Program-made: the position numbers and the translations under genes
Part shown: positions 28,552-31,998 of the stretch, piece by piece
Layout of the letters: every line of letters begins with the position of its first letter
Position numbering within the stretch: the stretch's first letter is position 1
Notes under the pieces: model-generated
Database searches by the model: none
Seen by the model: the letters and a program-made list of their open reading frames with translations, nothing else
What the model was told of the DNA's origin: nothing
Source of the DNA: Acidimicrobiaceae bacterium
Lineage (GTDB): Bacteria; Actinomycetota; Acidimicrobiia; Acidimicrobiales; RAAP-2
DNA length: 32,143 nucleotides
Direction: 5' to 3'
Assembly: GCA_003142095.1 (NCBI GenBank)
Contig: PLON01000023.1
Span: 7,585-39,727 of the forward strand

Positions 28552-29530
28552 CGATCCCGTCCCTCCTCTTCTTGACGCTAGCCAACCAGTTGGCGTAAAA
28601 GCGTTTGGCCATGGAGTGCCAGGGCCACGGAGCTCGGGCGCCGACGTCATCGAACGGGTACGCGTCGAGGAGCGCTGGATCTCGCCGGCCCCCGATGATC
28701 AACTCGTGCATTTTCTCCAGTTGCTCCCAGTCCTCGGGCGCCACGCAGTGAAACGGCAGGATGGGCAAATCGTCGCGTTCGTGCAGTACGTAGCGGCGAG
28801 CGTCGCGGTGATACTCACGCAGCAGGCTGGACGGCTCGTACTCGGGGTGGCTCTGGACGAACACCACGTTGCATCCGGCGATCTCTTTGGTGGCCACGCT
28901 CCACCCCACGGTGTCGGACTGAATGGGTAAGCGGTAGCCCGAGTGCACCAGGGCGTCCTGGGGCACGGTGTTGTTGCGTGTATGAGGAAGAAGGATCTCC
29001 GGCTCCAACCCAAAGGCGAGCGGATGGGTTCGATCTACCTGCTGGGAAAAGACACCGGTGCACTTCGACGGCAGTCGGACACGCTCGATACCGTCGAAGA
29101 TTGTCATGGCCGCATGCGCGGACAAGCAAGAGAGCAACATCGAGGCGACGTTCTCACTTCCCCACGAGAGCAACTCGGTCAGATCGGCCCAGTAGAGCTC
29201 ATCTCGCATCTTCGTCTCAATAGGTTTCGATGCCGTCACGATCAAGAGGTCAGGTGGATCAAGGTACACGTCGAAGACGGGCGAGTACTCCTCGGCGATC
29301 CTGGCCGCCGTCCGTTCTCCCCTCGCCACGACGGCCATGGCGTAACGACGAACCTCGATCACCTCGGACCCCGAACCCGCGTCGAGCAGTTCGAGATACT
29401 GTCGCTCGGTGGCGTCGAAGGCGCCGTCGGGCATATTGTTCACGAACGCACAGGTCCAGCGCGTTTGATTGGTACTCGTCTCGGGTGAGGGGTTCGGACG
29501 CGTAGCGTCTTGAACCAGCCGCACCGCCAC
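28544..29530 (-). CDS. metA: homoserine O-succinyltransferase/acetyltransferase, MetA family
   Basis: The 328-residue product matches the MetA family. It has AFVNNMPDGAFDATERQY near the N-terminus, MLLSCLSAHAAM with the nucleophile Cys135, LPSKCTGVFS with Lys156, LPHTRNNTV, and VFVQSHPEYE with His228 and Glu230. These correspond to Cys142, His235 and Glu237 of E. coli MetA. The enzyme acylates homoserine on its hydroxyl to prime it for sulfhydrylation or other replacement. Cys in CLSAHA is usually CWGAQA, so this is a divergent branch and the acyl donor is uncertain. The start is GTG at 29530, overlapping by one base the stop of an upstream fragment. The following gene would use its product but is truncated. 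Confidence 0.82.
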   Translation of the reverse strand: MAVRLVQDATRPNPSPETSTNQTRWTCAFVNNMPDGAFDATERQYLELLDAGSGSEVIEVRRYAMAVVARGERTAARIAEEYSPVFDVYLDPPDLLIVTASKPIETKMRDELYWADLTELLSWGSENVASMLLSCLSAHAAMTIFDGIERVRLPSKCTGVFSQQVDRTHPLAFGLEPEILLPHTRNNTVPQDALVHSGYRLPIQSDTVGWSVATKEIAGCNVVFVQSHPEYEPSSLLREYHRDARRYVLHERDDLPILPFHCVAPEDWEQLEKMHELIIGGRRDPALLDAYPFDDVGARAPWPWHSMAKRFYANWLASVKKRRDGIDA

Positions 29531-29688
29531 TAGTCGTCGCTCACGTTGTCGTGCGTCACCGTTACCTCTTCGTGCAGCAGTCGATTCACCGCTTGCAACT
29601 CGGCGTCGTCATGAACAGAACCGACGACGGCCATGATGTAGTTGCGAGATCCGTCCATCCAGTCCAGGGCGGCACCGGGCCCCGTAAC
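29530..29688 (-). pseudogene. C-terminal fragment of an unidentified gene, coupled to the MetA-family gene
   Basis: On the minus strand an open stretch after a TAA near 29688 encodes about 52 residues: AALDWMDGSRNYIMAVVGSV, then HDDAELQAVNRLLHEEVTV and THDNVSDD, ending with TAG at 29532-29530. Composition and secondary-structure pattern look like the end of a folded protein, and its stop overlaps the next GTG start (TAGTG), as in real operons. No start codon or N-terminal domain is present, so its 5' part was probably lost when the higBA segment arrived. I do not recognise the family. Confidence 0.45.
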
Positions 29689-29690
29689 TT

Positions 29691-29999
29691 ATGGCGACCA
29701 GTGGTCGCTTCTCGCCGGACGTCGCATCGAACGTGTCCCTAACCACCTACCGGATGTTAGCGTTGAACTGGGCGCTCGATCAGGAACTTCTCCGTTCGGC
29801 CGTACGCAAACTCCTAATTCTCGGTGCTGGCGAACAATTGAACGACGTGACCATCCCGTCAGGTAACCGACGTGAGAAGTTGCAAGGTGACCGTGCGGGT
29901 CAGCACAGCATTCGGATCAACCAGCGGTGGCGAAACTGTTTTCGCTGGACTGCGGCGGGGCCGGAAGACGTATTGATTGTGGATTATCACCGAGGAGGA
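29691..29999 (+). pseudogene. HigB/RelE-type toxin remnant, in frame with higA
   Basis: The second half is a clear HigB: LLILGAGEQLNDVTIPSGNR, then REKLQGDRAGQHSIRINQRW, RNCFRWTAAGPEDVLIVDYH. Complete relatives end at or just after VDYH and begin with a segment containing a run of the form (G)RR(I/V)(E/R)R(V/F)P. That segment is here in another frame (WSLLAGRRIERVPNHLPDV, near 29697-29753), so a frameshift separates the N-terminal helix from the body. The stop codon after VDYH is missing, and the frame passes through RGG into HigA. HigB toxins cut mRNA on the ribosome; this one is probably inactive as such. Confidence 0.6.
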
Positions 30000-30002
30000 A
30001 TG

Positions 30003-30311
30003 ATGGCAAAGACGATGGACCCTATTAAGCCGGGCGAGATATTGATAGAGGAGTTTCTCATTCCTCTTGGCATCAGTCAGAATACGCTGGCCCGCGCTCT
30101 CCGTGTTCCGCCGCGTCGAATCAACGAGATCGTACTTGGAAAGCGTCGCATTACTGCCGATACGGCGTTGCGACTCTCACGGTTTTTCGCAATGAGTGAG
30201 GGATTCTGGATGAACCTTCAGGATCGCTATGACCGTGAAGTCACCAGAACCCGGATCGCTGATGTCTTGTCCGCAATCGACCCGTGGGTGAGTAACGCGC
30301 GTACTGCTTGA
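30003..30311 (+). CDS. higA: HigA-family antitoxin (XRE)
   Basis: From the ATG at 30003 the product is 102 residues, the usual HigA length. It begins MAKTMDPIKPGEILIEEFLI and has a helix-turn-helix (SQNTLARALRVPPRRINEIV, then LGKRRITADTALRLSRFFAM) and SEGFWMNLQDRYD, all typical of HigA. GAGGAGG at 29992-29998, four bases from this ATG, is an excellent ribosome-binding site, so the antitoxin can be made on its own. The same frame also reads through from the upstream HigB remnant (29691 onward) and would give a 206-residue fusion. HigA binds its promoter and the toxin. Confidence 0.85.
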   Translation: MAKTMDPIKPGEILIEEFLIPLGISQNTLARALRVPPRRINEIVLGKRRITADTALRLSRFFAMSEGFWMNLQDRYDREVTRTRIADVLSAIDPWVSNARTA

Positions 30312-30684
30312 CGTCACGTTTCGATCTGTGCTGGTGAACGCCGACATCGGTGTTTGCGCCGATTTCATCAGTCGCTCCAACACATTCAAGTTTGGAGCGG
30401 GCGACGAGAATCGAACTCGCGTTCTCACCTGGGGAAGCGTATCCCGCCCTGTCGGAACCAACCAAGAAAGTGCTGATTAGGACAATTTAAGCGACGACGA
30501 AGGGCGGAAGGTGAACACCTGGGGCGCTCCATGGGCACCAGTGGGCGAGCGCCTCAGTTATGGCGACTGACCCGGGATCAGTCAGGTTGAAGTCGCTAAA
30601 GGCAGTCTCTCCTATCGAGGTGCTGGTGACACACTCAACGGTGCCAGCGAGTCAGGCCGACACGGTGAACTTCACACACGGCGC
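30312..30684. other. non-coding stretch with tRNA remnant between higA and vapC
   Basis: The left part holds the tRNA 3'-half described separately. The right part (about 30480-30684) shows no gene; a short plus-strand frame (30560-30748) has no recognisable domain and runs into vapC antisense. ACTGACCCGGGATCAGT (near 30566-30582) can form a small hairpin. Confidence 0.4.
30393..30431 (-). tRNA. tRNA 3'-half remnant (Gly-like), probable attachment-site scar
   Basis: On the minus strand the end of a tRNA is clear: T-arm GCGAG-TTCGATT-CTCGT, acceptor 3' strand CGCCCGC, discriminator base T, and encoded CCA. It resembles tRNA-Gly, whose 5' acceptor strand would be GCGGGCG. Upstream there is no D-arm and no properly paired anticodon arm: a GCGGGAT lies only 25 bases before the T-arm. 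So this is not a working tRNA. A lone tRNA 3'-half is what an element leaves at one end after integrating into a tRNA gene. By its orientation, the element would extend to the right of 30431. Confidence 0.6.
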
Positions 30685-31080
30685 TCAGATGGTGATGATC
30701 TCGATGAGGTTCTCGAGGCCGGTGAAGTCGTGGGGAGTGCGTGTGTAAAGCGCGAGCCCATTGGCGTGGGCGGTGGCGGCGATGAGCAGGTCCGCGATAC
30801 GACGCTGGTGAGAGCGGCCAGTGTCGACAACGGCGGCGACGACTTGGCCATAACTGCGAGCGGCGCTGACATCGAATGGGATCGGGTCGAAGGTTGCCTC
30901 AACTTGTTGGAGTCGAGACTGGCGACGGGCACTCTCAGCGCCCGTCGAGGCCAGACGAGGACCCGCAGTCAATTCAGCCAGTGTGATCGCGCTGATCGCG
31001 GCTTCGTCCGGGAGTGCGGCGGCGACATCACGGTCGTCCCAATCAATGACGACTGACGTATCGAGTAGCCCCGTGGACAT
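30685..31080 (-). CDS. vapC: VapC-type PIN-domain ribonuclease toxin
   Basis: The 131-residue protein has the PIN acidic residues in place: LLDTSVVID (Asp7), ITLAELTAG (Glu36) and RRIADLLIAATAHANG (Asp97), followed by LYTRTPHDFTGLENL. VapC toxins are Mg-dependent RNases that cut tRNA or rRNA. Its ATG follows the stop of the antitoxin gene with no gap (TAA then ATG). The active-site residues look intact. The partner is a Phd/YefM-type antitoxin. Confidence 0.9.
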   Translation of the reverse strand: MSTGLLDTSVVIDWDDRDVAAALPDEAAISAITLAELTAGPRLASTGAESARRQSRLQQVEATFDPIPFDVSAARSYGQVVAAVVDTGRSHQRRIADLLIAATAHANGLALYTRTPHDFTGLENLIEIITI

Positions 31081-31329
31081 TTAGAGACTCTGGTCGATGA
31101 CGCGATCGAGATCAGATCGAAACTGTTCGAGGTCGATGTGCGGCCCATGGACCGCGACGGCCAAGAGGTCGCTCTTCGGCACGAAACTCCGACGTGGGCT
31201 TCGGATTGGCCCGAGTTCGGCCACGGGAACACCGTTGCGGGTCACGACAAAAGTCTCCCCGGACACCACGGCATCGATTACGCGAGCGTTGTCGTTTCGC
31301 AACTCTCGTTGGGGAATGGTCTTAGTCAT
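31081..31329 (-). CDS. Phd/YefM-family antitoxin (VapB partner)
   Basis: The 82-residue protein starts MTKTIPQRELRNDNARVIDA and continues VVSGETFVVTRNGVPVAELG, the Phd/YefM DNA-binding and dimerisation fold. The C-terminal part (LEQFRSDLDRVID) is the acidic toxin-neutralising segment. On the minus strand TACGAT lies six bases before the ATG, so the transcript probably starts at or next to the start codon (leaderless). CGTAGC repeats around that -10 suggest autorepression. Confidence 0.87.
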   Translation of the reverse strand: MTKTIPQRELRNDNARVIDAVVSGETFVVTRNGVPVAELGPIRSPRRSFVPKSDLLAVAVHGPHIDLEQFRSDLDRVIDQSL

Positions 31330-31435: not shown

Positions 31436-31672
31436 ATGAGCCGGGTACGAGTAAGCACAACGGTCGATGGCGACCTATTAGACGAAGCACGGCGATTGCG
31501 TTCCAACGCAAATGACGCCACGTTGCTTGACGAGGCACTCGGCGCGCTTGTCGCTCGCAATCGTGCGGGTGAGATTGACGCCGCATACGTCGCGTACGAC
31601 GAGTTCCCAATTGACGAATTCGATGAATGGGGCAACCTCGCTACGTTTCATGCTGGTGCCGCCGCTTCGTGA
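31436..31672 (+). CDS. ribbon-helix-helix-type antitoxin of a MazEF-like pair
   Basis: From the ATG at 31436 the product is 78 residues. SRVRVSTTVDGDLLDEARRL and LLDEALGALVARNRAGEIDA form a short beta strand plus two helices, as in ribbon-helix-helix antitoxins. The C-terminal tail is acidic (YDEFPIDEFDEWG), as expected for binding a basic toxin. The stop overlaps the GTG of the toxin gene by four bases (GTGA). A longer frame from 31349 lacks start signals and would span the TATAAT box. Confidence 0.82.
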   Translation: MSRVRVSTTVDGDLLDEARRLRSNANDATLLDEALGALVARNRAGEIDAAYVAYDEFPIDEFDEWGNLATFHAGAAAS

Positions 31673-31998
31673 CTCCAATACCGCTAAGGGGCGAAGTCTG
31701 GTGGTGCGAGTTGCCAGAAATACAAAGAAGACCCGTGGTCGTGATTTCTCGCGACGCGGCCATCCCGAGATTGCATCGAACGTTGATTGCACCGTGCACA
31801 ACGACGATTCGTAACCTTCCGAGCGAGGTGGTCCTTGAGCCAGGAGAAGATCCAATCGATCGTCGTTGCGCGGTCAACCTCGATTCGGTTGAGAGTGTTT
31901 CGATATCGATTTTGGTGGAGAGAATTGGACGCCTCAGCGACGGGCGGATGCGCCAGATTTGCTCTGCACTTAATGTTGCGGTCAGTTGTGGAGAGTAG
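31669..31998 (+). CDS. mazF: MazF/PemK-family endoribonuclease toxin
   Basis: From the GTG at 31669, which overlaps the antitoxin stop, the product is 109 residues. Motifs are LRGEVWWCELPEIQRRPVVV, ISRDAAI, TLIAPCTTTIRNLPSEVVL and CAVNLDSVESVSISILVERI, ending LSDGRMRQICSALNVAV. This is the MazF/PemK order: a beta-barrel RNase that cuts mRNA or rRNA at short motifs. The Arg of RRPVVV and the Thr of CTTT, both near the active site in the family, are present. An in-frame ATG at 31627 would add 14 residues inside the antitoxin gene and is unlikely. Confidence 0.87.
   Translation: MTPIPLRGEVWWCELPEIQRRPVVVISRDAAIPRLHRTLIAPCTTTIRNLPSEVVLEPGEDPIDRRCAVNLDSVESVSISILVERIGRLSDGRMRQICSALNVAVSCGE

What the first reader, a model, noticed from the sequence alone, without database searches (positions are those of the whole stretch)
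29691..30311. HigB remnant fused in frame to HigA
The HigB body ends at its normal VDYH but has no stop, and the frame continues through RGG into a HigA that also has its own strong Shine-Dalgarno and ATG. The HigB N-terminal segment appears in another frame just upstream. The result could be a 206-residue toxin-antitoxin fusion made alongside free HigA, either a stage of toxin decay or a tethered regulator.
Basis: partly seen in the sequence, partly recalled or inferred. Interest (0 to 1): 0.55.

Follow-up and report, generated by a model that had tools for sequence, protein, structure and literature searches.

The report
Decayed toxin gene before intact antitoxin
A broken copy of a common bacterial toxin-antitoxin pair has lost the start and the stop of its toxin gene but kept its antitoxin gene, so what looks like a fused protein is most likely an accident of gene decay beside an intact second copy.

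Summary
The 206-codon ORF (29691-30311) is real: HigB residues run without a stop into HigA, which keeps a strong Shine-Dalgarno site and ATG. The HigB N-terminus is not upstream in another frame. An intact higBA copy, 88% identical, lies about 11 kb away on the same contig; homology to it starts at 29773 (HigB codon 21), and its junction reads TGA where the window reads CGA. Upstream of 29773 is another gene: antisense and leader of a deleted ATP-grasp-like gene, present without higB in relatives. The truncation removed operator, presumed promoter and HigB start. HigB changes since then look neutral (9 nonsynonymous, 4 synonymous), HigA's constrained (3, 9; small counts). The likely product is free HigA, a solitary antitoxin. 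No other match in 99 genus and 296 class genomes spans both domains without a stop; one class relative has a roughly 10-residue HigB tail running stop-less into HigA. Fused HigB-HigA genes are already in print (PMC11980606). Ordinary.

The parts
29530..29658 (-). C-terminal remnant (42 codons) of a mostly deleted ATP-grasp-like gene
   Evidence: matches by eye the C-terminus of the 431-aa ORF of relative L120 (G063:C18); two ATP-grasp-type profiles reach their cut-offs on that ORF (PF02786, PF02655); DNA homology
29609..29746 (-). N-terminal remnant of the same gene, now in another frame
   Evidence: N-terminus shared by eye with L120 and with the 85-aa internally deleted ORF of L117
29691..29772 (+). 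first 27 codons of the 206-codon ORF: antisense of that gene's 5' end plus its leader, not HigB
   Evidence: query residues 1-29 match G063:C21:22424-22510 (86%) and G078:C98:15380-15466 (83%), where no HigB follows
29773..29990 (+). HigB remnant, from codon 21 of the intact 93-codon toxin; join at about 29773-29778
   Evidence: DNA alignment to the intact paralogue starts at 29773; flank homology to L117/L118 ends at 29777/29778
29991..29993 (+). CGA at the place of the toxin stop codon (TGA in the paralogue)
29993..29998 (+). Shine-Dalgarno AGGAGG of higA
30003..30311 (+). higA, whole antitoxin gene (102 aa)
   Evidence: TIGR02607 103.6 bits, cut-off 47.7; 3 nonsynonymous to 9 synonymous changes on this lineage
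30393..30424 (-). 3' part of tRNA-Gly(CCC), one of 10 matches in this genome; edge of a repeat-bounded array

Best explanation
It is a decayed higBA toxin-antitoxin locus. A recombination or deletion joined the leader of an already broken ATP-grasp-like gene to codon 21 of higB, removing the palindromic operator, the presumed promoter and the toxin's start. With HigB no longer made, its stop codon and body drifted (TGA to CGA plus changes at conserved positions). HigA kept its own Shine-Dalgarno site and start and is most likely made alone, from read-through transcription. As a solitary antitoxin it can plausibly neutralise HigB of the intact paralogue 11 kb away and bind that copy's operator. 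Shown: truncation point, foreign 5' part, stop loss, missing operator, intact paralogue, substitution counts. Inferred: which product is made, that the palindrome is the operator, order of truncation and stop loss, cross-neutralisation and cross-repression. The confidence given is for the decay core; the step that HigA is still made and useful I put at about 0.55-0.6.
For: Intact paralogue on the same contig, 88% identical over 543 bp, homology from 29773, TGA against CGA. Flank homology to relatives ends at 29777/29778 and the 5' codons occur in two relatives without higB. N-terminal HigB profile finds nothing upstream. Palindrome ATAACG-N5-CGTTAT: exact in 32 of 141 loci held (several are the same place twice), upstream of the matched toxin in 28 and inside the match in 4; directly before higB in the intact copy, G063, G027 and G121; in this genome exact only at the intact copy; 0 in the window with up to 3 mismatches, 0.34 expected by chance. 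Changes on the window lineage: HigB 9 nonsynonymous to 4 synonymous (neutral fraction 0.71, P=1.0), HigA 3 to 9 (P=0.0014), Fisher P=0.047; pairwise dN/dS of the two copies 0.45 in HigB, 0.12 in HigA. D38G, L54R and I75N, all polarised to the window lineage, have 0 of 78 precedents. HigA start -11.6 kcal/mol against -2.8 for the ORF's ATG. A second stop-less HigB tail before HigA in G248:C50.
Against: The frame is open for 206 codons. Counts are small, some changes may predate the truncation, and the HigB-HigA contrast is only P=0.047. The intact copy's HigB is itself not significantly constrained on its lineage (4 nonsynonymous to 4 synonymous, P=0.24) and has two residues without precedent in 78. 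AlphaFold gives the HigB remnant fair confidence (block means 68-88), so a folded remnant is not excluded. No promoter for HigA was found (0 sites, 0.4 expected), so its expression is not shown.
Confidence: 0.85

Rival explanations
1. A functional HigB-HigA mono-gene fusion (tethered regulator or masked toxin) made from 29691 alongside free HigA.
For: Open frame of 206 codons; the Asp-Tyr-His end of HigB is kept; HigB-HigA fusions are in print: 10 prokaryotic PF_HigB and 17 PF_HigB-like (PMC11980606 Table 2, passages seen).
Against: N-terminal 27 codons are foreign and predicted disordered (residues 1-28 pLDDT under 50); weak initiation site; L54R and I75N at conserved hydrophobic positions; no recurrence of a match spanning both domains in 99 genus and 296 class genomes, nor in 84 other loci.
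Confidence: 0.06
2. The whole locus, HigA included, is a dying pseudogene with no function (shares the decay core with the best explanation, differs in the fate of HigA).
For: Operator and presumed promoter lost, no promoter-like site found; a related locus, L021 = G065:C46, shows both genes degraded, HigA with an in-frame stop.
Against: HigA is full length, above the family cut-off, keeps its Shine-Dalgarno and shows 3 nonsynonymous to 9 synonymous changes.
Confidence: 0.3
3. Assembly or sequencing artefact: a chimeric join or a wrong base at the stop.
For: The genome is an incomplete assembly of 77 contigs; reads were not available; repeats are many here.
Against: The remnant differs from the intact copy at 12% of positions, so it is not copied reads of it; relative G063 has the same flank followed by a higBA pair in the same order and orientation, 2 kb further.
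Confidence: 0.06

Closest known systems
HigBA type II toxin-antitoxin system (PF05015 HigB-like toxin with TIGR02607 HigA)
   Same: gene order toxin-antitoxin, both families, Shine-Dalgarno of higA overlapping the end of higB
   Different: toxin lacks codons 1-20, operator, presumed promoter and stop; only the antitoxin gene is whole
[quoted passage not shown]
   Same: one open frame holds toxin and antitoxin residues in that order
   Different: toxin domain incomplete and drifting, N-terminus foreign, not found in other genomes searched
Orphan antitoxins / anti-addiction modules (PMC7354431, passages seen)
   Same: whole antitoxin gene without a functional toxin in cis, with traces of the lost toxin
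   Different: an intact related pair sits 11 kb away on the same contig; neutralisation untested

Membership tests
HigBA type II toxin-antitoxin system | full-length HigB toxin domain | tested here: not met
   profile match starts at position 21 of 93; PF05015 from 27 of 91
HigBA type II toxin-antitoxin system | HigA antitoxin above family cut-off | tested here: met
   TIGR02607 103.6 bits, cut-off 47.7
HigBA type II toxin-antitoxin system | palindromic operator upstream of the toxin gene | tested here: not met
   0 matches in the window with up to 3 mismatches; exact in this genome only at the intact copy. The palindrome itself is inferred to be the operator.
HigBA type II toxin-antitoxin system | toxicity and neutralisation | not testable with these tools
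   needs expression
Fused toxin-antitoxin mono-gene module | one frame without stop through toxin and antitoxin | tested here: met
Fused toxin-antitoxin mono-gene module | complete toxin domain in the fusion | tested here: not met
Fused toxin-antitoxin mono-gene module | recurrence of the fusion in other genomes | tested here: not met
   none spanning both domains in 99 genus and 296 class genomes nor in 84 loci; one short stop-less HigB tail in G248
Orphan antitoxin | whole antitoxin gene without a whole toxin gene in cis | tested here: met
Orphan antitoxin with anti-addiction role | neutralises toxin of a related module | not testable with these tools
   an intact related HigB exists on the same contig

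The most novel reading that the evidence does not exclude
The relic is the eroded outermost unit of a tRNA-Gly(CCC)-anchored array of small gene units, several of them toxin-antitoxin pairs, bounded by copies of the tRNA's 3' half and moved by a tyrosine recombinase acting in trans: an integron-like array with tRNA ends in the place of attC sites. HigA is kept as immunity against the intact higBA unit further along.
Probability: 0.25. Interest if true: 0.5.

Novelty: new member of a known kind. Interest (0 to 1): 0.2.

Why it matters
It shows how an apparent toxin-antitoxin fusion can arise by decay: in 79 of 84 related loci the antitoxin lies in the toxin's frame and in 68 a single in-frame stop separates them, so once the toxin has lost its start one substitution makes a 'fusion'. 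Surveys that count fused toxin-antitoxin genes should check that the toxin part is whole. It also gives a case of toxin loss next to an intact paralogue, in which cross-neutralisation by the left-over antitoxin can be tested.

Tried and rejected
Rejected: HigB N-terminus upstream in another frame. Rejected: stop-less HigB-to-HigA reading as unique to this genome. Of the class rows, three beginning before the junction (G338:C2, G248:C50, G332:C115) had no stop; I read them and one HigB row (G223:C1). G248:C50 has a HigB tail of about 10 residues running into HigA (it scores only -0.9 bits, so it rests on its position, model 83-93, and on the motif VEIVEYH). G338:C2 is HigA without a clear HigB trace (best -1.8 bits). 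G332 and G223 have whole HigB with a stop, HigA in another frame. Led nowhere: promoter scan of 29400-30450 (0 promoter-like sites, 0.4 expected); literature searches for tRNA-bounded toxin-antitoxin cassettes (2 and 7 papers listed, none on this by title or start of abstract; none read); the listings gave nothing used beyond a passage of PMC7180214. In one search the look at L118 across the join found nothing because my search string was not in it. In one search the G121 row was entered on the wrong strand, so I rely instead. The structure model does not decide between readings, since such models respond little to point changes (general knowledge).

Full report
What was checked. The ORF 29691-30311 (+), 206 aa, is in the sequence. 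Pfam puts HigB-like toxin PF05015 at residues 35-100 and HTH_3 at 119-170; NCBIfam puts HigA TIGR02607 at 109-186. Among solved structures the best sequence matches are 3trb, to the HigA half, and the toxin chain of 6f8s, aligning from its residue 33. HigA's ATG at 30003 has a very strong Shine-Dalgarno site, equal to that of the intact copy (-11.6 and -11.5 kcal/mol).

The intact copy. A search of the window's own genome (2.64 Mb, 77 contigs) with the 206-aa protein finds one other place, C58:48168-48689, 85% identical, with one TGA inside. It is an intact pair: HigB of 93 aa (L003:11109-11390) and HigA. The two loci are 88% identical over 543 bp, window 29773-30315; the toxin stop is TGA there and CGA here. 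No homology was found 5' of 29773, apart from a possible stretch of about seven bases across a 4-base gap. So about 20 toxin codons are missing.

What lies 5' of the join. Window 29531-29682 and 29672-29771 lie about 1.1 kb apart in G063:C18, G071, G015 and at a second locus of this genome, C1. In G063:C18 they fall at the two ends of a minus-strand ORF of 431 aa on which two ATP-grasp-type profiles reach their cut-offs. In G063:C21 that ORF is reduced to 85 codons, an internal deletion by comparison by eye; in the window the remnants are out of frame with each other. Homology to these flanks ends at 29777 or 29778, overlapping the start of higB homology by about five bases. The first 27 codons of the supposed fusion are therefore the antisense of that gene's 5' end plus its leader; residues 1-29 match G063:C21 and G078:C98 at 86% and 83%, where no higB follows. 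In G063:C21 a higBA pair lies 2 kb further in the same orientation, 73.5% identical to the window copy, so the loci share a neighbourhood but the window copy is closer to its own paralogue.

Lost control region. The palindrome ATAACG-N5-CGTTAT stands directly before higB in the intact copy, G063, G027 and G121. It is exact in 32 of 141 loci held, some of them one place twice; in 28 it lies upstream of the match and in 4 (L078, L088, L095, L096) inside it. In this genome it is exact only at the intact copy; the window has none with up to 3 mismatches. At the intact copy the toxin's GTG follows the palindrome closely and has no Shine-Dalgarno (+1.0 kcal/mol), which suggests a leaderless transcript (inference). 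The truncation thus removed operator, presumed promoter and start together.

Drift of the toxin, constraint on the antitoxin. With G121 as outgroup, changes on the window lineage are 9 nonsynonymous to 4 synonymous in HigB (72 codons) and 3 to 9 in HigA (101 codons); on the intact lineage 4:4 and 7:11; ambiguous 1:1 and 2:7. Against a neutral nonsynonymous fraction of about 0.71, the window's HigB does not depart (P=1.0) and its HigA does (P=0.0014); the intact lineage gives P=0.24 and 0.0069; window HigB against window HigA gives P=0.047. Pairwise dN/dS of the two copies is 0.45 in HigB and 0.12 in HigA, while most other HigB pairs give 0.05-0.12, with dS saturated in several. The counts are small and include time before the truncation. 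Window residues with 0 of 78 precedents in intact homologues are D38G, L54R (74 of 78 Leu), I75N (78 of 78 Ile, Val or Leu) and S88L; the last is not clearly a change of the window lineage. The intact copy has two residues of its own without precedent, Y76 and V81. The model of the 206-residue product has residues 1-28 and 101-107 under pLDDT 50, a confident HigA and a fair HigB remnant.

How rare is it. Among 84 other loci with both genes, HigA is in HigB's frame in 79, exactly one in-frame stop separates them in 68, and none lacks a stop. Of 99 genomes of the genus 18 have a match (this genome included; G078 through the 5' extension only), and of 296 drawn from the class 24 (this genome included); none other than this genome has one stop-free match spanning both domains. 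Three class rows that begin before the junction without a stop were read: G338:C2 is HigA without a clear HigB trace, G332:C115 has whole HigB and HigA in different frames, and G248:C50 has a HigB tail of about 10 residues (..VEIVEYH) reading without a stop into HigA, with the rest of the toxin not found. I take G248 as the same decay path, independently. In L021 = G065:C46 both genes are degraded, HigA with an in-frame stop, so antitoxin retention is not the only outcome.

Comparison with what is known. Fused toxin-antitoxin genes are in print: PMC11980606 (passages seen) lists 10 prokaryotic and 2 eukaryotic HigB-HigA fusions and 17 and 3 HigB-like ones. Orphan antitoxins as remnants or anti-addiction modules are reviewed in PMC7354431 (passages seen). 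The present case fails the fusion test on the complete toxin domain and on recurrence and meets the orphan antitoxin test on anatomy.

Setting. Window 30393-30424 (minus) is the 3' part of tRNA-Gly(CCC). This genome has 10 matches, one in a full tRNA gene on C59 followed by four more at 0.9-1.8 kb spacing. Of 99 genus genomes 73 have at least one match, the tRNA gene itself included, and this genome has the most in that table. On C59 the units hold an AAA/DUF4143 ATPase, an AbrB/MazE-like antitoxin with a small partner, two units without a clear family, and, after the last copy up to the contig end, a Phd antitoxin with a ParE toxin. higBA lies between two copies in G121 (about 0.8 kb apart), in G027, and at the intact copy here. 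In G063 only an interrupted copy follows higBA (by eye; a 41-bp match), missed by the scan. Ten other loci of the genus in that scan, with higBA, its pieces or more distant relatives, have no copy in the stretch held; 436 kb of loci from other groups gave 0 matches. Two tyrosine recombinase genes lie between the two higBA copies. Other genomes carry the repeats round other kinds of genes (L137). Tandem islands at tRNA genes are a known phenomenon (general knowledge); whether these units move singly is untested.

Odds.

Noticed in passing
window 30393-30424; C59:37199-42260 (L136); L119; L017: Copies of the tRNA-Gly(CCC) 3' part, in one orientation on C58 and on C59, bounding units of about 0.8-8 kb, several with toxin-antitoxin genes; higBA forms a 0.8 kb unit between two copies in G121.
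   Followed up: partly
window 30685-31329 (-) and 31436-31998 (+): Two further toxin-antitoxin pairs right after higA: PIN toxin with Phd-like antitoxin, and a MazF/PemK-like toxin with a weakly matching VapB/CcdA-like partner.
   Followed up: partly
window 29530-29746 (-); L117:1723-1980; L120:2042-3337: ATP-grasp-like gene upstream of a homoserine O-succinyltransferase-like gene lost in steps: 431 codons in L120, 85 codons after an internal deletion in L117, two out-of-frame remnants in the window.
   Followed up: partly
L003:4145-7848 (-): Two adjacent tyrosine recombinase genes (825 and 409 aa) with an IS21-type IstB gene nearby, between the two higBA copies.
   Followed up: no
L147 (G248:C50), reverse strand, match 914-1225: Second case of a stop-less HigB tail (about 10 residues) reading into a HigA.
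   Followed up: yes
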